Shown one piece after another: positions 7,982 to 20,214 of a stretch of DNA of 64,000 nt (positions within the stretch are counted from its first letter, which is position 1; every line of letters starts with the position of its first letter). The stretch is from Kribbella sindirgiensis. GTDB lineage: Bacteria; Actinomycetota; Actinomycetes; Propionibacteriales; Kribbellaceae. The stretch lies in assembly GCF_004331435.1 (NCBI RefSeq), contig NZ_SJKA01000022.1, forward strand, positions 1 through 64,000, written 5' to 3'. A model generated the notes under the pieces. The model searched no databases, was not told the DNA's origin, and saw only the letters and a program-made list of their open reading frames with translations. A program made the translations under genes and the position numbers.

Positions 7982-9694
7982 TCAGGCCGGGGAGACGATG
8001 TCCGGTGCTTCCAGGCGGACCTTGTCGGCCGACTCGTCGTCGGGCTGGTCCTGCGAATCGCGTTCGGACTGCACTCGCCGGGTGTAGAACGAGACCTCGC
8101 GCTCGATGGTCGCCTCGTCCCAGCCGAGGATCGGCGCGACCAGCCGGGCAGCCGCCTCGGCGGCGCCGACGCCGCGGTCCCAGGCCTCGATCGAGATCCG
8201 GGTCCGCCGGGCCAGGATGTCGTCGAGGTGCCGGGCGCCCTCGGCCAGCGCGGCGTACACGATCTCGGCCTTCAGGTAGTCCTGCGTACCGGGCAGCTGC
8301 TCGCCCAGCGACGCGTCGTCGGCGACGAGCTCGAGGACCTCGTCGACCAGTGCGCCGTACCGGTTCAGCAGGTGCTCGATCCGGGCGACGTGCAGGCCGG
8401 AGCGCTGCGCGATCAGGTGCCGCTGGTTCCACAGCGCCTGGTAGCCGTCCGCGCCGACCAGCGGGATGTTCTTCGTGACACTGCGCGGCACCCGCCCGTC
8501 GAGCGCGTCCGCGGCCGCGTCGATCGCGTCCTTGGCCATCACCCGGTACGTCGTGTATTTGCCCCCGGCCACCACTACGAGACCTGGCGCCGCGTGCGCG
8601 ACCACATGTTCGCGGGACAGTTTCGACGTACTCTCCGACTCACCGGCGAGCAGCGGCCGCAGACCGGCGTACACGCCCTCGACGTCCTCTCGGGTGAGTG
8701 GGGTGGTGAGGACGGCGTTGACGTGGTCGAGCAGGTACTCGATGTCCTTGCTGGTCGCGGCCGGGTGCGCCTTGTCCAGATGCCAGTCGGTGTCGGTGGT
8801 GCCGATCAGCCAGTGCCGGCCCCACGGGATGATGAACAGCACGGACTTCTCGGTCCGCAGGATCATCCCGGTGCTGGACTGGATCCGGTCCTTCGGGACG
8901 ACGAGGTGGATACCCTTCGACGCGCGGACGTGGTACTGCCCGCGCTCGCCCACCATCGCCTGCGTGTCGTCGGTCCAGACACCGGTCGCGTTCACGACCT
9001 GCTTGGCGCGGACCTCGAACTCGCGCCCGCTCTCCAGGTCCTTCGCCTGGACGCCGGTGACCCGCTCGCCCTGGCGCAGGAACCCGGTCACCTTCACCCG
9101 GTTGGCGACGAGCGCGCCGTACGACGCCGCGGTCCGGGCGAGCTCCATCGTGTGCCGCGCGTCGTCGACCTGCGCGTCGTAGTACTGCAGCGCGCCGACC
9201 AGTGCGGACTTCTTCAGCGACGGTACGAGCCGCATCGCGCCGCGCCGGGTCAGGTGCCGGTGGATGGGCAGTCCGGCGCCGAGGCCGGAGCTGACCGCCA
9301 TACCGTCGTACAGCGCGACGCCGGCGCCGGCGTAGAACCGCTCCCACCAGCGGTGCTGCAGCGGGTACAGGAACGGCACCGGCTTCACCAGGTGCGGTGC
9401 CAGGCGTTGCAGGAGCAGACCGCGCTCCTGCAGCGCCTCGTGCACCAGCCGGAAGTCGAGCATCTCCAGGTAGCGCAGGCCACCGTGGATCAGCTTGCTG
9501 GACCTGCTGGAGGTGCCGCTCGCGAAGTCGCGGGCCTCCAGCAGTCCGGTGGTCAGGCCGCGGGTGGCGGCATCGAGCGCCGCGCCGGTGCCGACCACCC
9601 CGCCACCGATCACCAGGACGTCCAGTTCCCGTCCGTCGGCCAGCACGTCGATCGCGTCGGCCCTTGCTTGCGGTGACAGAGCCACTACAGCCAC
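7982..9694 (-). CDS. glpD: Glycerol-3-phosphate dehydrogenase, FAD-dependent (GlpD)
   Basis: Membrane-associated flavoenzyme of 570 aa that oxidises sn-glycerol 3-phosphate to dihydroxyacetone phosphate and passes electrons to the quinone pool. The N-terminal Rossmann motif is VLVIGGGVVGTG (about residues 26-37), followed by the family signature SGTSSRSSKLIHGGLRYLE. The C-terminal helical domain typical of GlpD is present (about 400-540). GTG start with GGAGGAAA eight nucleotides upstream. It is the last gene of glpF-glpK-glpD, 33 bp after glpK. Full length. Confidence 0.95.
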   Translation of the reverse strand: MAVVALSPQARADAIDVLADGRELDVLVIGGGVVGTGAALDAATRGLTTGLLEARDFASGTSSRSSKLIHGGLRYLEMLDFRLVHEALQERGLLLQRLAPHLVKPVPFLYPLQHRWWERFYAGAGVALYDGMAVSSGLGAGLPIHRHLTRRGAMRLVPSLKKSALVGALQYYDAQVDDARHTMELARTAASYGALVANRVKVTGFLRQGERVTGVQAKDLESGREFEVRAKQVVNATGVWTDDTQAMVGERGQYHVRASKGIHLVVPKDRIQSSTGMILRTEKSVLFIIPWGRHWLIGTTDTDWHLDKAHPAATSKDIEYLLDHVNAVLTTPLTREDVEGVYAGLRPLLAGESESTSKLSREHVVAHAAPGLVVVAGGKYTTYRVMAKDAIDAAADALDGRVPRSVTKNIPLVGADGYQALWNQRHLIAQRSGLHVARIEHLLNRYGALVDEVLELVADDASLGEQLPGTQDYLKAEIVYAALAEGARHLDDILARRTRISIEAWDRGVGAAEAAARLVAPILGWDEATIEREVSFYTRRVQSERDSQDQPDDESADKVRLEAPDIVSPA

Positions 9695-9727
9695 TGTGTT
9701 TCCTCCGAACTCGTTGTTACCTGAAAA

Positions 9728-11245
9728 TCAGTCGACGTCGACCCAGTCCAGGGTGCGCTGCACGGCCTTCTGCCAGCCGGCATACCCCTTCTCGCGCTGC
9801 TCGTCGTTCCACTGCGGCTCCCACCGCTTGTCCTCGTTCCAGTTCGCGACCAGTTCGTCCTTGGTCTTCCAGAACCCGACCGCGAGGCCGGCCGCGTACG
9901 CCGCACCGAGCGCGGTGGTCTCGGCGACGACCGGCTTGCTCACCGGTACCCCGAGGATGTCGGCCTGCATCTGCATGCAGAGTTCGTTCGCCGTCACGCC
10001 GCCGTCGACCTTCAGTACGTCGAGCCGCACGCCGGAGTCCTTCTCCATCGCGTCCGCGACGTCCTTGCTCTGGTAGCAGATCGCTTCCAGTGTCGCTCGC
10101 GCCAGGTGCGCGTTGGTGTTGAACCGGGACAGCCCCACGATCGCGCCGCGGGCGTCGGACCGCCAGTACGGCGCGAACAGGCCCGAGAACGCGGGGACGA
10201 AGTACACGCCGCCGTTGTCCTCGACCTGGCGGGCGAGTGTCTCGGTCTCGCTGGCGCCGGAGATGATGCCGAGCTGGTCCCGCAGCCACTGCACCGCGGA
10301 GCCGGTGACCGCGATCGAGCCCTCCAGCGCGTACACCGGGGCCTCGTCGCCGAACTTGTAGCACATCGTGCTGAGCAGGCCGGCCTTCGAACGGACCAGT
10401 TCGGTGCCGGTGTTCAGCAGCATGAAGTTGCCGGTGCCGTAGGTGTTCTTCGCTTCACCAGGGTTGAAGCACACCTGACCGACCGTCGCCGCCTGCTGGT
10501 CGCCCAGGTCGCCGGTCAGCGGGACGACGCCGCCCAGCGGGCCGTTCGCGAGCGTCTCGCCGTACATGTTCGGGTCCGACGACGGCCGGATCTCCGGCAG
10601 CATCGAGCGCGGGATGTTGAAGAAGCTGATCAGCTCGTCGTCCCAGTCGAGGGTCTCGAGGTTCATCAGCATCGTGCGGCTGGCGTTCGTGACGTCGGTG
10701 ATGTGTACGCCGCCGTTCACGCCGCCGGTCAGGTTCCACAGCAGCCAGGTGTCGGTGTTGCCGAACACGGCGTCACCGGCCTCGGCCGCCGCCCGGACGC
10801 CGTCGACGTTCTCGAGGATCCACTGGACCTTGCCGGCCGAGAAGTACGTCGCCGGCGGCAGGCCGGCCTTCTGCCGGATGACGTCGCCCTTGCCCTCGCG
10901 TTCGAGCGCGGAGGCGATCCGGTCGGTCCGGGTGTCCTGCCAGACGATCGCGTTGTAGTACGGCCGGCCGGTCTTGCGGTTCCAGACCACGGCCGTCTCG
11001 CGCTGGTTGGTGATCCCGAGCGCCGCCAGGTCGCTCGCCTGCAGGCCCTTCGCACCCAGCGCGGTCTGGACCACGGAGCTGGTCCGCTCCCAGATCTCGA
11101 CCGGGTTGTGCTCGACCCAGCCGGCCTGCGGCAGGATCTGTTCGTGCTCCAGCTGATGGATGCCCACCTCGTTGCCGGAGTGGTCGAAGATCATGAAGCG
11201 GGTGCTCGTGGTGCCCTGGTCGACGGCACCGACGAAGTCAGCCAT
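9728..11245 (-). CDS. glpK: Glycerol kinase (second copy, glpFKD operon)
   Basis: FGGY-family glycerol kinase, 505 aa, in the order glpF-glpK-glpD. Motifs include [42 protein letters not shown] and [10 protein letters not shown]. The ATG at 11245 is chosen over an upstream in-frame start at 11263 because GGAGAGG lies at the right distance and the protein then begins [11 protein letters not shown] as usual. It shares long blocks with the other glpK at 5220, so the two are paralogues. The operon position suggests this is the main catabolic kinase. Confidence 0.94.
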
Positions 11246-11272
11246 GGAAAGTCCTCTCCTCACACGTGTGTG

Positions 11273-12106
11273 TCATGCCGCCTTCTCCTCGGGGAGCCGG
11301 CCGGGTTCTTCTTCCTCGTCCGCGATCGGCAGGTTGCGGCCGACCAGGAGGTCGTACAGGAACGCGCCGACCAAAGCGCCGAGGATCGGTGCCACGATCG
11401 GCACCCAGAAATAGAGATCCCCGAACTGGTCTTTGAGTGCTCCTCCGTACCCCGTGATCAGCGAGGCCACCCGGGGCCCGAAGTCACGGGCCGGGTTGAT
11501 CGCGTACCCGGCGTTGGTGCCCCACGCCATCCCGATGCCGACCACCAGCAGGCCGACGAGCAGCGGCGCCATGTTGGCCGCGGGTGACGTGTTGCGCAGG
11601 TCGGTGATCGCCAGGATGACGAACATCAGGATCGCCGTACCGATGATCTGGTCCCGGAAACCGCCCCACATGCCCACGCCGAGATCCAGGCTGCCGTTGC
11701 CGGGCAGGGTGGAGAAGATGCCCTGGGTCTTGATGGTGTGGCCTGGGTCGACCTTGCCGATCGCCTCGGTGTAGTTCCAGCGAACCACGAGCGCCGCCAG
11801 GAACGCCCCGAGGAACTGCGCCACCGAGTACGGCAGCACCTTCCGCCAGCTGAACCCGCGGAACGCCGCCAGCGCGATCGTCACCGCCGGGTTCAGGTGC
11901 GCGCCGGTCATCCGGCCCGCCGTGTAGATGCCCAGGGTCACGCCGAGACCCCATGCCCACGAGATCGAGTCGTGGTTCCCGATCCCGCCCGCCACCACCT
12001 GCGCCACCACGCCGACGCCGAACAGGATCAGGATGAACGTGCCCGCCAGTTCCGCCGAACACTCCCCCAGAAGGGTCTTCGCTTTGACCGCTTCGGTCGT
12101 AGCCAT
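11273..12106 (-). CDS. glpF: Glycerol uptake facilitator (aquaglyceroporin GlpF)
   Basis: MIP-family channel of 277 aa for glycerol entry. Both half-helix motifs are present: HLNPAVTIALA (first NPA) and AINPARDFGPRV (second NPA), with the aspartate after NPAR that marks glycerol facilitators rather than pure water channels. Six transmembrane helices are evident; the C-terminal tail is charged. ATG start with AAGGGAGG upstream. First gene of glpF-glpK-glpD, with a good promoter and a palindromic operator candidate upstream. Confidence 0.95.
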   Translation of the reverse strand: MATTEAVKAKTLLGECSAELAGTFILILFGVGVVAQVVAGGIGNHDSISWAWGLGVTLGIYTAGRMTGAHLNPAVTIALAAFRGFSWRKVLPYSVAQFLGAFLAALVVRWNYTEAIGKVDPGHTIKTQGIFSTLPGNGSLDLGVGMWGGFRDQIIGTAILMFVILAITDLRNTSPAANMAPLLVGLLVVGIGMAWGTNAGYAINPARDFGPRVASLITGYGGALKDQFGDLYFWVPIVAPILGALVGAFLYDLLVGRNLPIADEEEEPGRLPEEKAA

Positions 12107-12852: not shown

Positions 12853-12934
12853 GCCCCGACCCTACGACGCACTCAGATCCCGTGGACCCGGTAGTTTTGT
12901 GGTCCGTTTCGCATCGCCCCGAGGAGCGCCGCCT

Positions 12935-15900
12935 GTGGCCGTGTCGCCGTACACCTTTCGAGGTGCGATCGACCTGCTCCATCCGGACCGGCGTACCCGG
13001 TCCGTCCTCGACAAGCTGTTCGGTACGGCGCTGTTCGCCGGAGCCGGTGTCGCGGCGGCAACCGGCGGACCGGTCGCAGGACTGACGGCGGCCGCCTGGC
13101 TCGCGCTGGCCGACCCGAAGAACGAGGCGGTGAACCTCCTGACGCCCGTCGTCACCGAGGTCACGCAGCGGCTGCGGGGCTCGAAGGAGGCCGGGCAGCT
13201 CGAGCTGATCGCGGCCGCGCACACGGTCACGGTGCTGTCGTCGTTCTTCGACTCGCTCCCGGCGATCCTCGGCAAGCCCTTCCGCCGGCTCGAGCTCACC
13301 GACGCGGAGCGGGACCGGCTGATCGCGGAGGCGCCCGCGGAACCGGACGGCTTGCTCGACGTCGTCGTGCCGCTGCCGTCTCCGCGGCTCGGGCTCGACG
13401 AGAACATCGACCAGAACATCCGCCCGTACTACGAGCGGCTCGTGGCACGCTGCATCGACTTCTTCACCGGGCTCGACGCCTGGGACCGCGTGAACGCGCC
13501 GAGCGGGCTCGAGAGCGCGATCGTCAATCACTCGGTCGGCTTCTACCGCAGCCGGATGCTCGAACTCGCTCCGTCCGAACCCTTCGCCCTGTGGCTCACG
13601 TTGAACGAGATCGCCGCGACCCGGAACGAGGTCCGGGGACAGGCGACCGCATTCGAGGAACTCCGCGAACTGCTGGCCGTAGCCGCAGCCGGCAGCGCGC
13701 TCGGACCCGGCACCTACCGCGAGCAGCTGGCCCTGGCCGCGGAGGAGGTTCTGGACGAGCCCTTGCTGCGATCGCGGCTGCAGACGGTCGCGTCGCCGAC
13801 AGTGCGCGACGGATTCGTCGAACCGGCGTTCCACCATGCGATCGCGACCAAGGATTCGCGGCCGACCGACGAGGACTGGTGGTCCGAACAGCCGGAGTAC
13901 TCGTCGTTGGTCGAGTTCCTCGCCGGGTACCTCGCAAGTCCGGAGAGCTCCCGCCTGCCGCTGCTGCTGCTCGGCCATCCCGGCGCAGGCAAGTCGCTGC
14001 TGACCGAAGTGCTGGCAGCCCGGTTGCCGGTGCAGTCCTTCGCGGTCGTCCGGATCACGCTGCGCTCGGTGAATCCGGACGACGACCTGGCAACGCAGAT
14101 CACCAAGGAACTACAGCGGACCCTGCAGCGCCCGAACGCCGACCTCGACGTGCTCCGGCGCGAGTGCGGGCCGTGCGACGAGTGCCGCCTGGCCGGGCGT
14201 GTATGCCCGCATCAGTGCCACCTCGTCGTACTCCTGGACGGCTTCGACGAACTCGTCCAGGCGACCGGAGTGGCGCAGTCCGCGTACCTGACGAAGATCG
14301 AGGCATTCCAGAAACGCGAGCGGACGATGGACCGCCCGACCTCCGTCGTCGTCACCTCGCGCACGGTCGTCGCCGACCAGGCCGAGATCCCGCACGGAAC
14401 GCCGATGATCAAACTCCGTGAGTTCGACGACACCAGGATCCAGCACTGGCTGACCGCCTGGAACGCCGTACACGCGGATGCTCCCGACTTCGCGCCGATC
14501 GCACTCGAGGAGCTGACGGCGTCCAAGGACATCGCGGAGCTGGCCCGTCAGCCGCTGCTCCTGCTGATGCTCGCGGTCTACTTGGCGGAGCTCGGAACGA
14601 ACAGCCTGGGTGCGGCGGACCTGACCCAGAGCGGGCTGTACGAACGGATCCTGGACCGGTTCATCATCCGCCAGATCACCGAGAAGTCAGCGCAGTCGAC
14701 GGACGATCAACTGTTGCTGCGGCGTCAGCAACGCCGTCGGCTGCAGTACGCCGCCTTCGGGATGTTCAACCGGGGCCGCCAGCACCTCACCGACGCGGAG
14801 CTCAACGCGGATCTGTCCGCACTGGAGCCCCCGGTCGTCGCAACTCCCGGGATTCAATCGCTCAGCCCGGCCGATCGCGTCCTGGGCGATTTCATGTTCG
14901 TCCACAACGCGCGCGCGGACCGCGAACAGCGCAGCGCATACGAGTTCCTGCACGCGACCTTCGGCGAGTTCCTGGTCGCGGAACTCGTCATCGAACTGCT
15001 CGTCCAGCTGATGCGCCACCGCAAGCTGGAGGCCGGCCTCCCGCACGCGGGCGGTCTGGACGACGAACTCCTGCGCCGCCTTCTCAGCCACCAGCCGCTC
15101 AGCACCCGCCAGCCGATTCTGATCTTCGCCGCCGAGCTCGCCGAGCGCCTGACCGACGACGACCGGGACTCTTTCCAAGCCACCATCAGCCACCTCCTCC
15201 ACCGCGAACTCACCCGCCCGGACGCCGGCGACCAGCTCTACCTGCCACTCCCCTACGACCCGGTACGACGCCGCGCGTCGTACACCGCCAACCTGACGAT
15301 GCTCAGGGTTCTGCTCGCCGACGAACCGGTGCCCATCGAGACGGTCGTGGGTCCGGATCATGTCGACCGCTGGACCCGGATGGTCCGGCTGTGGCGCGCA
15401 GGACTCGACCTGTCGTCGTGGACCACGGTCATGGGTGTGATCGCCGTCGAGGCCGTTGACGACCTCATCAACTTGTCGGTTGCACATCTCACTCCACGGC
15501 TCGACACCGGTCTCGATCCCGCCCTGAACGAGGCCGAACTGCTCGGCGATCTCAGGCACAAGGCCGAGCTCATGATCGGTTCTGTCGATTCCCGGTCGGG
15601 TGACGACCTCTGGCGGCACACCGACGTGGCTGCCATGCAGCAGGTCGCGATCATCGACTTCCTGGGTACGGCCATCCCGCAGTTCGATCGGCTCCTGCCG
15701 TTGGACGACGTGTGGTTCGACGAACTGCTGGCGACGGTCTCGTCGGCGCCGGCGGTCAACTCGAACGTCAGGCGAGCGATCCTGATCCTGCTCTCCCGAA
15801 CCGCTCCGCGCTTGCCGTTCGACTATGTCCAGGAGTTGCTGACTGCCGTCCTGCCGGCTCCGTCGCCCGGGTGGGAGGTCGAACTCGCGGCCGTGGTCGG

Positions 15901-16363
15901 ATGCCACCCGGGGCTGCTGACCGCGTTGCCCGAACTCCGCGACTACCTGTACGCCGCCGACCCGGCGCGCTCGACGACCGTTGTCGCGGTTCTGTGGCGT
16001 GCCGAAGCGCACGCCACCGGAAACGACCGGAGCGAACTTGAGGTCCTCCGGCTCGAGATCGACCGCTACGTCGCCCAATCGATGCCGATCACCTGCGACC
16101 ACTACTTCGCTGCGGATTTCATCACCTATCTGCGGGCCCAGGAGCCGACCCACTGGCTCAGCCAGCACGACGTTCCGCAGATGTTCCGCGACCTGCAAGG
16201 CGAGTATCTGGAGCGGATCGCGCCGGAGGATGTGCTCTACGTCGCGGAGACCTGGCCTGACAGCTCCGGGGACTTCGTTCAGAAGTATCTGCTCAGCCGG
16301 GCGGTTCTCGTGCAGCCAGGCGAGGATCTCACTGGCGCCCTCCGGGAGCTGAGTAACCGCTGA
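12935..16363 (+). CDS. NACHT-type STAND NTPase, candidate anti-phage NLR-like protein
   Basis: A 1142-aa STAND NTPase. The GTG at 12935 is preferred because GAGGAG lies 8 nt upstream and the protein then begins VAVSPYTFRGAIDLL; a longer frame from 12851 has no ribosome-binding site. Residues 1-110 form a hydrophobic helical domain (ending near LIAAAHTVTVLSSFFDSL) resembling actinobacterial NACHT N-terminal helical domains (NNH7-like, from memory). The NTPase has Walker A GHPGAGKS (347-354) and a NACHT Walker B DGFDEL (435-440). Between them is a cysteine cluster C411-x2-C-x2-C-x6-C-x3-C428, possibly a zinc knuckle. The helical C-terminal half (about 700-1142) shows no WD40 or TPR repeats. It stands alone, which fits single-gene bNACHT defence systems; that role is inferred. 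Confidence 0.85.
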   Translation: MAVSPYTFRGAIDLLHPDRRTRSVLDKLFGTALFAGAGVAAATGGPVAGLTAAAWLALADPKNEAVNLLTPVVTEVTQRLRGSKEAGQLELIAAAHTVTVLSSFFDSLPAILGKPFRRLELTDAERDRLIAEAPAEPDGLLDVVVPLPSPRLGLDENIDQNIRPYYERLVARCIDFFTGLDAWDRVNAPSGLESAIVNHSVGFYRSRMLELAPSEPFALWLTLNEIAATRNEVRGQATAFEELRELLAVAAAGSALGPGTYREQLALAAEEVLDEPLLRSRLQTVASPTVRDGFVEPAFHHAIATKDSRPTDEDWWSEQPEYSSLVEFLAGYLASPESSRLPLLLLGHPGAGKSLLTEVLAARLPVQSFAVVRITLRSVNPDDDLATQITKELQRTLQRPNADLDVLRRECGPCDECRLAGRVCPHQCHLVVLLDGFDELVQATGVAQSAYLTKIEAFQKRERTMDRPTSVVVTSRTVVADQAEIPHGTPMIKLREFDDTRIQHWLTAWNAVHADAPDFAPIALEELTASKDIAELARQPLLLLMLAVYLAELGTNSLGAADLTQSGLYERILDRFIIRQITEKSAQSTDDQLLLRRQQRRRLQYAAFGMFNRGRQHLTDAELNADLSALEPPVVATPGIQSLSPADRVLGDFMFVHNARADREQRSAYEFLHATFGEFLVAELVIELLVQLMRHRKLEAGLPHAGGLDDELLRRLLSHQPLSTRQPILIFAAELAERLTDDDRDSFQATISHLLHRELTRPDAGDQLYLPLPYDPVRRRASYTANLTMLRVLLADEPVPIETVVGPDHVDRWTRMVRLWRAGLDLSSWTTVMGVIAVEAVDDLINLSVAHLTPRLDTGLDPALNEAELLGDLRHKAELMIGSVDSRSGDDLWRHTDVAAMQQVAIIDFLGTAIPQFDRLLPLDDVWFDELLATVSSAPAVNSNVRRAILILLSRTAPRLPFDYVQELLTAVLPAPSPGWEVELAAVVGCHPGLLTALPELRDYLYAADPARSTTVVAVLWRAEAHATGNDRSELEVLRLEIDRYVAQSMPITCDHYFAADFITYLRAQEPTHWLSQHDVPQMFRDLQGEYLERIAPEDVLYVAETWPDSSGDFVQKYLLSRAVLVQPGEDLTGALRELSNR

Positions 16364-18538: not shown

Positions 18539-19045
18539 ATGGCCGAGGCGACCGGGTTCGCCGAGTTCGCGACCAGCAGGCACGGCGCGCTCTTCCGGTA
18601 CGCGTACCTGCTGACCAGCGACCGCGGCCTCGCCGAGGACCTCGTCCAGGAGGCGCTGGTCAAGACGTACGTCGGCTGGCACCGGCTGCGCGATCCGGCC
18701 AACGCCGAGGCGTACACCCGCCGCGCGATCACCACCACCGCGATCGGCTGGTGGCGCCGGAAGTCCTGGCGGGCGGAGCGGCCGTACGACGACGTACCCG
18801 ATCTGCCGGTCAGCTCCGACGACGCGACCGCCCGCGTCTGGCTGTGGCGTGAACTGCAGAAGCTCCCGCCGCGGCAACGGGCCGCGCTGGTGCTGCGGTA
18901 CTACGAAGACCTCACCGAACCGCAAACCGCCGAGGTCCTCGGCTGCAGCGTCGGGACCGTGAAGAGCCAGGTCTCCGACGCACTCAAGAAGCTCCGGGCC
19001 CGCCTGGGCTCCGATGTCGTGCTGAAGGCAGGGATGACGGAATGA
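18539..19045 (+). CDS. ECF RNA polymerase sigma factor, SigE family
   Basis: A 168-aa extracytoplasmic-function sigma factor. Region 2 includes LFRYAYLLTSDRGLAEDLVQEALVKTY, typical of the actinobacterial SigE family. Region 4 has LPPRQRAALVLRYYEDLT and the helix-turn-helix ETAEVLGCSVGTVKS-like stretch. ATG start with AAGGGGGAC upstream. Its stop overlaps the start of the next gene (ATGA), so that gene probably encodes its regulator. Target genes unknown. Confidence 0.9.
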   Translation: MAEATGFAEFATSRHGALFRYAYLLTSDRGLAEDLVQEALVKTYVGWHRLRDPANAEAYTRRAITTTAIGWWRRKSWRAERPYDDVPDLPVSSDDATARVWLWRELQKLPPRQRAALVLRYYEDLTEPQTAEVLGCSVGTVKSQVSDALKKLRARLGSDVVLKAGMTE

Positions 19046-20214
19046 ACGATCTCCTCAGGGACACCCTGACCGAACGCGCCGCCGCCACCGAGCCGCCACC
19101 GCTCGACCTCGACGGCATCATTGCGGCCGGCAACCACCGCGCCGCCCGCCGGCGCACGCTCGGCATCCTCGGCGGCGCCGCCGCGACCGCGGCCGTCGTT
19201 GCCGGTGGCGCGACCGTGCTGCGGCCACGTGACGAACAACCCCAGCCGGCCCGCCCCGGGCCGTTCTCCCAGCGCCGCGCGACCTTTGCGCTGGGCAACG
19301 AGATCCATTACGGGTCCGAGGTCGTCTCGGTAGCGCCGCACACGGTGACCGCGTTCGTCCAGACCGACGCAGGCTTCGTGTTCCTGAACGCCGAGAACGC
19401 GATCCACGTGGCCGACCGGTCGGGTGTGCGGAGCCTCGGAAAGAGCGCGTGGCGGCTCACCGCCGACCACCGCGGCAATCTGGTCGGCTGGGTCGAGAGC
19501 CTCAACGACCACGGCGAGTCGGTCGTGTACGACGTCGCCGCGCGCCGCGAACTCGTCCGCACCCCGATCGGCAACAAGATCCCGAAGTACGCCAGTCTCG
19601 CCCACGGCCCGGAGATCGTCGCCCTCGACGGCGGCACGGCGTACTTCGGCACGCTCGACGGCCTGTACCGCTGGGACATCCGCACCAACCGGGGTGAGTT
19701 CATGGCCAAGGTGTCACCGGTCGCGGTCCGCACCGTGACGGCCGGGCAGCTGGTGTACCAACAGCCGCTCGGGCAAGCAGGCACAGGCCTCTCACTGAAG
19801 GTCGGTCCCACCCTCACCACGGGAACCCGGACCACGTACAACGGCCAGCAGGCGTTCCTGTCGCCCCACGCGACCTACCTTGTGACGCAACCGGACGATG
19901 CCATGATGGGCATTCAGCCCAGCTGGGCCGGTCTCCAGTTGTTCGGCGTGACTGCGGATCGAGGAGGCCCGTTGCCACGCCCGTACTGGAACTTCTTCTT
20001 CGGTCAGTGGCTCGACGACACCAACTTCACCGCGGCGGGCCTCCGATCGGGAACCAACGCGGACGTGGTGGACCTGCTCACCTGCAACGCCTCCAGCAGC
20101 GCGTGCACCGTTGTCGCGAAGGAGTTCTCCAAGCTCACCTTCAGCAAGCAGCCGCCGCGGGTCGCGCCGTTCGCGTTGCCGACCGGCCGGCCGATCATCG
20201 ATCGGGGCGAATGA
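19042..20214 (+). CDS. Membrane-anchored protein coupled to the ECF sigma factor
   Basis: A 390-aa protein with a basic cytoplasmic N-terminus (about 1-38), one transmembrane helix (LGILGGAAATAAVVAGGATV, about 40-60) and a long extracytoplasmic part. The latter is rich in short beta-strand-like repeats (GNLVGWVES, GTAYFGTLDGLYRWDI), suggesting a beta-propeller-like domain. Start and stop overlap with the sigma gene (ATGA). There is no HxxxCxxC zinc anti-sigma motif, so if it controls the sigma factor it is a non-canonical anti-sigma. The membrane topology is clear; the role is inferred from coupling. Confidence 0.65.
   Translation: MNDLLRDTLTERAAATEPPPLDLDGIIAAGNHRAARRRTLGILGGAAATAAVVAGGATVLRPRDEQPQPARPGPFSQRRATFALGNEIHYGSEVVSVAPHTVTAFVQTDAGFVFLNAENAIHVADRSGVRSLGKSAWRLTADHRGNLVGWVESLNDHGESVVYDVAARRELVRTPIGNKIPKYASLAHGPEIVALDGGTAYFGTLDGLYRWDIRTNRGEFMAKVSPVAVRTVTAGQLVYQQPLGQAGTGLSLKVGPTLTTGTRTTYNGQQAFLSPHATYLVTQPDDAMMGIQPSWAGLQLFGVTADRGGPLPRPYWNFFFGQWLDDTNFTAAGLRSGTNADVVDLLTCNASSSACTVVAKEFSKLTFSKQPPRVAPFALPTGRPIIDRGE

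What the first reader, a model, noticed from the sequence alone, without database searches (positions are those of the whole stretch)
12935..16363. Solo NACHT STAND NTPase with an inserted cysteine cluster
Seen: Walker A at 347-354 and a DGFDEL Walker B at 435-440, separated by a five-cysteine cluster (C-x2-C-x2-C-x6-C-x3-C). A hydrophobic helical N-terminal domain and a repeat-free helical C-terminal half complete the protein. Known: bacterial NACHT proteins (bNACHT) act as single-gene anti-phage systems with varied N-terminal effectors. Inference: this is a defence NLR whose cysteine cluster could be a zinc knuckle or redox sensor, and whose N-terminal domain may insert in membranes. The placement next to a VOC gene rather than in a defence island is notable.
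Basis: partly seen in the sequence, partly recalled or inferred. Interest (0 to 1): 0.65.

Follow-up and report, generated by a model that had tools for sequence, protein, structure and literature searches.

The report
NLR-like bacterial protein with metal-site-like insert
A soil actinomycete carries a single-gene relative of animal and plant immune receptors, probably a guard against phages, whose ATPase core holds a small cysteine-and-histidine loop that looks like a metal-binding site and was not seen in the relatives examined outside its genus.

Summary
In detail: ORF 12935-16363 (1142 aa) has Walker A at 347, DGFDEL at 435 and C-x2-C-x2-C-x6-C-x3-C at 411-428. The N-terminus is Pfam NNH7 (E 2.2e-41), a named NACHT-linked helical domain, so this is an NLR-like (bNACHT-type) protein, here of Kribbella. 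It is an insert just before the Walker B strand; one gain and one loss fit the tree. A 31-34 residue uncharged stretch (28-59 here) is present in 11 of 11 genus members and fits a membrane-acting effector, though hydropathy in this copy is borderline. The last ~300 residues evolve fastest and matched none of 393 other class genomes. The gene is a solo presence/absence gene between housekeeping genes. Best reading: a single-gene anti-phage NLR whose insert is a structural zinc knuckle. Defence, metal and membrane action are inferred, not shown. New variant of a known kind.

The parts
12921..12926 (+). Shine-Dalgarno-like GAGGAG
   Evidence: sequence; GGAG upstream of most genus homologues
12935..16363 (+). 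NNH7-NACHT NLR-like protein, 1142 aa
12944..13609 (+). NNH7 domain (residues 4-225)
   Evidence: Pfam PF22738, E 2.2e-41; same DNA span
13016..13111 (+). 32-residue uncharged Gly/Ala-rich stretch (residues 28-59), candidate membrane hairpin
13973..13996 (+). Walker A GHPGAGKS (347-354)
   Evidence: all but H348 invariant in the 17 sequences of A1
14165..14218 (+). C5H insert C-GP-C-DE-C-RLAGRV-C-P-H-Q-C (411-428)
14237..14254 (+). Walker B DGFDEL (435-440), NACHT-type DGhDE
   Evidence: D435, G436, D438, E439, L440 invariant in A1
14351..14365 (+). VTSRT (473-477), sensor-1-like (label recalled)
   Evidence: T474, R476, T477 invariant and S475 nearly so in A1
14549..14566 (+). QPLLLL (539-544), NACHT helical-domain proline motif (label recalled)
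   Evidence: P540-L543 invariant in A1
15455..16360 (+). fast-evolving C-terminal part (841-1142), candidate sensor
   Evidence: mean pairwise identity 36-47% per 60-residue block against 73-80% at residues 301-480, ten genus proteins; residues 850-1142 match none of 393 other class genomes

Best explanation
A single-gene bacterial NLR of the bNACHT kind. At rest the NACHT module holds ADP and keeps the N-terminal NNH7 domain inactive. A phage cue read by the fast-evolving C-terminal helical part opens the module; ATP binding lets it assemble into a ring that brings NNH7 domains together. In this lineage the clustered NNH7 domains carry a Gly/Ala-rich hydrophobic hairpin and most likely damage the cell membrane, so that the infected cell stops or dies. 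The C5H loop before the Walker B strand most likely binds one zinc ion (CxxC plus CxHxC) and stiffens that loop, on the side of the domain away from the nucleotide (position by general P-loop anatomy, recalled). Shown here: domains, motifs, conservation, distribution. Inferred: every step of activity, defence, membrane action and zinc. The confidence given is for the core claim, a single-gene defence NLR with a metal-binding structural loop; every step exactly as written is nearer 0.2.
For: NNH7 142.9 bits; core NACHT motifs invariant across the 17 sequences of A1, own included; NOD2, NLRP3, NAIP5 and Avs3 or Avs4 among the structure rows, NLR rows spanning residues 259 to about 691 (weak model, no Foldseek match at E <= 0.001); C-terminal 300 residues the fastest part and without a match in 393 other class genomes, as expected of a sensor in an arms race; the protein is 61-68% identical to the G029 and G023 orthologues while esterase, SGNH, sigma and glpK proteins of the same loci are 90-98%; full relatives in 11 of 38 genus genomes and NACHT-free versions of the locus in G017 and G025. 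Zinc: five Cys and one His kept in 10 of 11 while the spacer between CxxC and CxHxC varies from 4 to 8 residues, with both TGC and TGT Cys codons in use. Membrane: a 31-34 residue uncharged stretch in 11 of 11 genus members, 38 and 23 in the two sister proteins L070 and L087, 8-22 in 35 other NNH7 proteins.
Against: No defence genes found beside it: ten window neighbours scanned against PADLOC gave one generic permease match. The protein has no specific PADLOC match. Pfam NACHT is below its cut-off (21.2 of 26.7 bits). Hydropathy of the N-terminal stretch is borderline in this copy (1.43), and NNH7 proteins outside the clade lack the long stretch, so membrane action cannot be a general NNH7 property by this argument. 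Two neighbours also vary a good deal: VOC 77-84% and the 390-aa protein 73-91% in the same two genomes, so fast divergence is not unique to this gene. G030 keeps a full-length protein without the inner part of the loop, so the loop is dispensable at least there. AF2 gave no usable model of the loop (pLDDT under 50 at 410-427) or of the N-terminus.
Confidence: 0.5

Rival explanations
1. Same NLR-like protein, but the cysteine loop is a redox or metal sensor: oxidation, or loss or gain of zinc or an Fe-S cluster, changes the loop and gates nucleotide hydrolysis or assembly.
For: C-x2-C-x2-C-x6-C-P in this protein resembles a ferredoxin-type ligand pattern (recalled); six potential ligands exceed the four that a structural zinc needs; the site lies just before Walker B.
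Against: The CX2CX2C spacing is not kept (G022 has C-x-C-x2-C) and the Pro after the fourth Cys is Thr in G022 and G027, while the His is kept in 10 of 10 loop-bearing proteins: this favours zinc over [4Fe-4S]. No coordinates or spectra.
Confidence: 0.2
2. A STAND regulator with a housekeeping role (for example envelope or glycerol stress linked to its neighbours), not phage defence.
For: Conserved position near glpFK in 9 of 11 carriers; no defence genes found near.
Against: The neighbours persist without it: G017 and G025 keep glpF-VOC-esterase with no NACHT match; no full relative in 27 of 38 genus genomes; faster divergence than most neighbours. STAND regulators usually carry a DNA-binding or enzymatic output (recalled); Pfam shows no output domain but NNH7.
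Confidence: 0.2
3. The cysteines are a neutral lineage quirk of a surface loop, with no metal and no function.
For: Seen only in this genus; reduced in G030 with the rest of the protein intact.
Against: Cys and His kept in 10 of 10 loop-bearing proteins in a loop whose other residues and length vary.
Confidence: 0.1

Closest known systems
Pfam NNH7 (PF22738) NACHT proteins of actinomycetes
   Same: NNH7 at residues 4-225 followed by a NACHT-type NTPase; 28-35% identity to the six aligned relatives from outside the genus
   Different: C5H insert (10 of 11 in the genus, 0 of 44 examined outside); long uncharged N-terminal stretch, otherwise only in L070 and, shorter, L087; C-terminal part without a match outside the genus in the class sample
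bNACHT antiphage proteins (bNACHT25, 32, 02, 12; PMC12169576, passages seen)
   Same: tripartite plan: N-terminal effector, NACHT, C-terminal sensor
   Different: bNACHT25/32 have an N-terminal PD-(D/E)XK nuclease and NCH1, bNACHT02/12 a SNaCT domain; Pfam showed none of the first two kinds here, and SNaCT was not tested; no phage data here
NLRP3 / NOD2 NACHT modules (PDB rows)
   Same: layout over residues 259 to about 691 suggested by a weak model
   Different: no sequence match in the PDB at E <= 0.05, best a Lon P-loop at 0.084; C5H loop; no LRR found by Pfam

Membership tests
NNH7 (Pfam PF22738) | profile match over cut-off across the domain | tested here: met
   142.9 bits, cut-off 27, profile 2-225 of 225
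NACHT / bNACHT | Walker A and Walker B of D-[GAS]-h-D-E type with sensor-1 and helical-domain proline motifs (definition recalled) | tested here: met
   GHPGAGKS, DGFDEL, VTSRT, QPLLLL; key positions invariant in the 17 sequences of A1
NACHT / bNACHT | Pfam NACHT PF05729 over its gathering score | tested here: inconclusive
   21.2 bits of 26.7 in hmmscan, 25.1 in the genome scan; 15 of 17 sequences of A1, own included, match at E <= 0.01
NACHT / bNACHT | NACHT fold | tested here: inconclusive
   NLRP3, NAIP5, NOD2 rows at Z 8.7-10.1, tied with ORC and other AAA+ rows up to 10.4; model mean pLDDT 53.7
NACHT / bNACHT | protects against phage, needs Walker A | not testable with these tools
   needs plaque assays
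zinc knuckle | four or more conserved Cys/His ligands in two close pairs | tested here: met
   CxxC and CxHxC in 10 of 11 genus homologues
zinc knuckle | binds zinc | not testable with these tools
   no usable model of the loop (pLDDT under 50), no metal assay
ferredoxin-type [4Fe-4S] site | CX2CX2C plus CP (pattern recalled) | tested here: not met
   present in this protein, but G022 has CXCX2C and Pro is Thr in G022 and G027
known PADLOC defence system | specific model match | tested here: not met
   only IetA, E 0.013, 13 bits, P-loop region

The most novel reading that the evidence does not exclude
A membrane-acting bacterial NLR whose NTPase switch is gated by a metal or thiol site placed in the nucleotide-binding domain by a lineage-specific insertion: the cell reads zinc or redox state together with the phage cue, a two-input immune receptor.
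Probability: 0.15. Interest if true: 0.65.

Novelty: new variant of a known kind. Interest (0 to 1): 0.37.

Why it matters
NNH7 is a named domain for which the one full-text search here found no relevant paper (two unrelated hits). A clade with a candidate membrane hairpin and a C5H insert, plus a natural relative (G030) without the inner loop and many relatives without either, gives a ready-made comparison for testing what an insert in the NTPase core of an NLR does. If the site is only structural zinc, it is a modest footnote to bNACHT diversity.

Tried and rejected
A ferredoxin-like reading of the loop was weakened by spacing changes. A relic reading of the empty sites was dropped: the last 15-24 bases of the ORF seemed to persist in G017 and G025, but in G029 and G034 similar bases lie after the stop codon, so they say nothing about gain or loss. 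Viral contigs: 56 stretches matched a pattern, no relative; phages: none; plasmid collection: four distant records, 32-36% identity, one of them chromosome-sized. Papers: 'NNH7', Kribbella with NACHT, NACHT with zinc or cysteine cluster, membrane effectors, bacterial NACHT with Streptomyces: the listings showed no report of such an insert. Listings only were seen, except passages of PMC12169576, PMC7159879, PMC8195603 and PMC13092281. The 2023 Cell paper on bNACHT proteins is not held and is recalled.

Limits: the class sample is 394 genomes drawn from a larger group. Of the 36 other class genomes with an NNH7 match, 35 are over the cut-off; loci of all 35 were read for the loop (29, six), with eight second copies and G128 of the order: 44 proteins. 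The three matches below the cut-off (G613, G098, G287) gave no readable Walker A-B span and are not in the count. The tree and the N-terminal comparison use only the first 37 outside proteins. NACHT proteins outside NNH7 were hardly sampled: Walker A to B spans of three (L109, L012, L014), one with three scattered Cys; L111 and L112 gave no span by my expression. The ten-protein identity profile leaves out the split G015 copy.

Full report
What is there. The ORF at 12935-16363 codes for 1142 residues and occurs once in its genome. Pfam places residues 4-225 in NNH7, NACHT N-terminal Helical domain 7, at 142.9 bits. The P-loop NTPase carries GHPGAGKS at 347, DGFDEL at 435, VTSRT at 473 and QPLLLL at 539; Pfam NACHT itself scores 21.2 bits, under the cut-off of 26.7, but 15 of the 17 sequences of alignment A1, own included, match that model at E up to 0.01. 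Beyond the NTPase core Pfam shows nothing. PADLOC gives only a 13-bit P-loop match to IetA.

Who carries it. Of 38 genus genomes, 12 match the protein at E up to 0.001; 11, own included, are full relatives (46-71% identity; G015's copy is split by a frame change near residue 213). The match in G013 and a second one in G030 are short and near 28-29%. NNH7 was found in 14 of 293 order genomes, 11 of them this genus, and in 37 of 394 class genomes, own included.

The cysteine loop. The motif is C411-x2-C414-x2-C417-x6-C424-x-H426-x-C428. Five Cys in 18 residues were reached in 0 of 20000 shuffles. In 10 of the 11 genus proteins all five Cys and the His are kept, although the spacer between CxxC and CxHxC varies from 4 to 8 residues; G022 has one residue fewer between the first two Cys, and G030 has only ECGEDC. 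In 44 of 44 NNH7 proteins examined outside the genus the Walker A to Walker B span is 72-81 residues with 0-2 Cys (37, 7 more); in the genus it is 91-96 with 5-6 Cys, except G030 with 81 and 2. On the tree of 48 proteins the genus proteins form one clade (SH-aLRT 100) and G030 sits inside it beside G027 (99), so one gain and one loss is the simplest history. Columns filled in under 30% of rows were dropped from that tree, which should take out the insert's own columns (10 of 48 rows), but I did not drop them by hand. In the AF2 model the loop lies between a helix (404-409) and the Walker B strand (429-435), with pLDDT under 50. Conserved ligands across a variable spacer are what a metal site looks like; zinc is preferred to Fe-S because the His is kept and the CX2CX2C and CP features are not.

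The N-terminus. Residues 28-59 hold no D, E, K, R, H, N or Q (20 of 20000 shuffles reach such a run). Over the aligned first 110 residues the longest such run is 31-34 in 11 of 11 genus proteins, 38 and 23 in the sister proteins L070 and L087, and 8-22 in 35 other NNH7 proteins (17 or more in three: L071, L092, L099) (which replaces the cruder count, where long upstream extensions hid some N-termini). AF2 draws two helices here (32-44, 46-59) at low confidence. This fits a hairpin that could enter membranes. The 19-residue hydropathy maximum at the stretch is 1.43 in this copy and 1.57-2.03 in nine other genus proteins (G033's was hidden by its long extension); NNH7 proteins outside the clade also reach up to 1.70 in their first 150 residues, at other places. 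So it is a suggestion, not a demonstration.

The C-terminus. Mean pairwise identity over ten genus proteins falls from 73-80% at residues 301-480 to 36-47% per block after residue 840. Residues 850-1142 match nothing in 393 other class genomes, a sample that holds no other member of the genus. AF2 gives its best confidence from about residue 950 on, all helical. A fast, lineage-specific C-terminal part is what a sensor of changing phage proteins would look like.

The locus. Adjacent genes are glpD, glpK, glpF, a glyoxalase-like VOC protein, an esterase, a GDSL lipase and a sigma factor (Pfam domains; gene names are mine). In 7 of 11 carriers the gene is next to glpF or VOC; in G027 and G030 it lies beyond the sigma-factor pair in the same segment; in G020 it is about 5 kb from the SGNH gene with no glp genes in the 20 kb seen; in G015 it is at a contig start with no such neighbours in 12 kb. 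Nine regions around VOC homologues (eight genomes without a full relative, and a VOC homologue of G022 that lies elsewhere) hold no NACHT match; G017 and G025 keep the p390-sigma-SGNH-esterase-VOC-glpF order. DNA similarity between these two and the window stops at 12868-12872 and resumes at 16339-16348, so the difference is one gene with its short upstream region. The gene is more divergent than most neighbours: for G029 68% against 92-98% for esterase, SGNH, sigma and glpK; for G023 61% against 90-98%; but VOC (77%, 84%) and the 390-aa protein (91%, 73%) vary too. Of ten window neighbours none has a specific defence model; one permease matches a CARF-LolE fusion model over part of its length.

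Mechanism. By analogy with bNACHT proteins, whose N-terminal effector, NACHT and C-terminal sensor plan is described in PMC12169576 (passages), I take this as a single-gene antiphage NLR with a membrane-acting NNH7 effector and a structural zinc loop. My odds: defence about 0.7, membrane action about 0.4, zinc about 0.65. The 0.5 given is for the core claim; all steps together are nearer 0.2.

Novelty. The kind is known; the variant, a C5H insert and a long hydrophobic NNH7 stretch in one genus, was not met in the paper searches listed, which cover open-licence papers only.

Noticed in passing
L080, L084, L085, L089 (class genomes G459, G483, G396, G451); also L083, L091, L095: Two NNH7-NACHT genes side by side or close together in 7 of 37 NNH7-bearing class genomes; in four of them the second gene belongs to a very divergent clade with an intact Walker A but Walker B DG(L/V)EE and a shorter Walker A-B span, reminiscent of paired sensor/helper NLRs of plants (comparison recalled).
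   Followed up: partly
L015 183-3588 (G015, Kribbella sp. VKM Ac-2568): The homologue is split by a frame change near residue 213, close to a contig start: decayed gene or assembly error.
   Followed up: no
L068 (G030) 8120-11482: Natural version of the protein without the inner loop, with only ECGEDC left at the insert site.
   Followed up: partly
L066 and L068, just after the NACHT stop codon: Both carry the same inverted repeat (cccgggatccgttggatcccggg) after the stop, perhaps a terminator.
   Followed up: no
window 19042-20214: 390-aa protein after the sigma factor with no Pfam match at 1e-4, 43-91% identical between genus members, possibly an anti-sigma partner.
   Followed up: no
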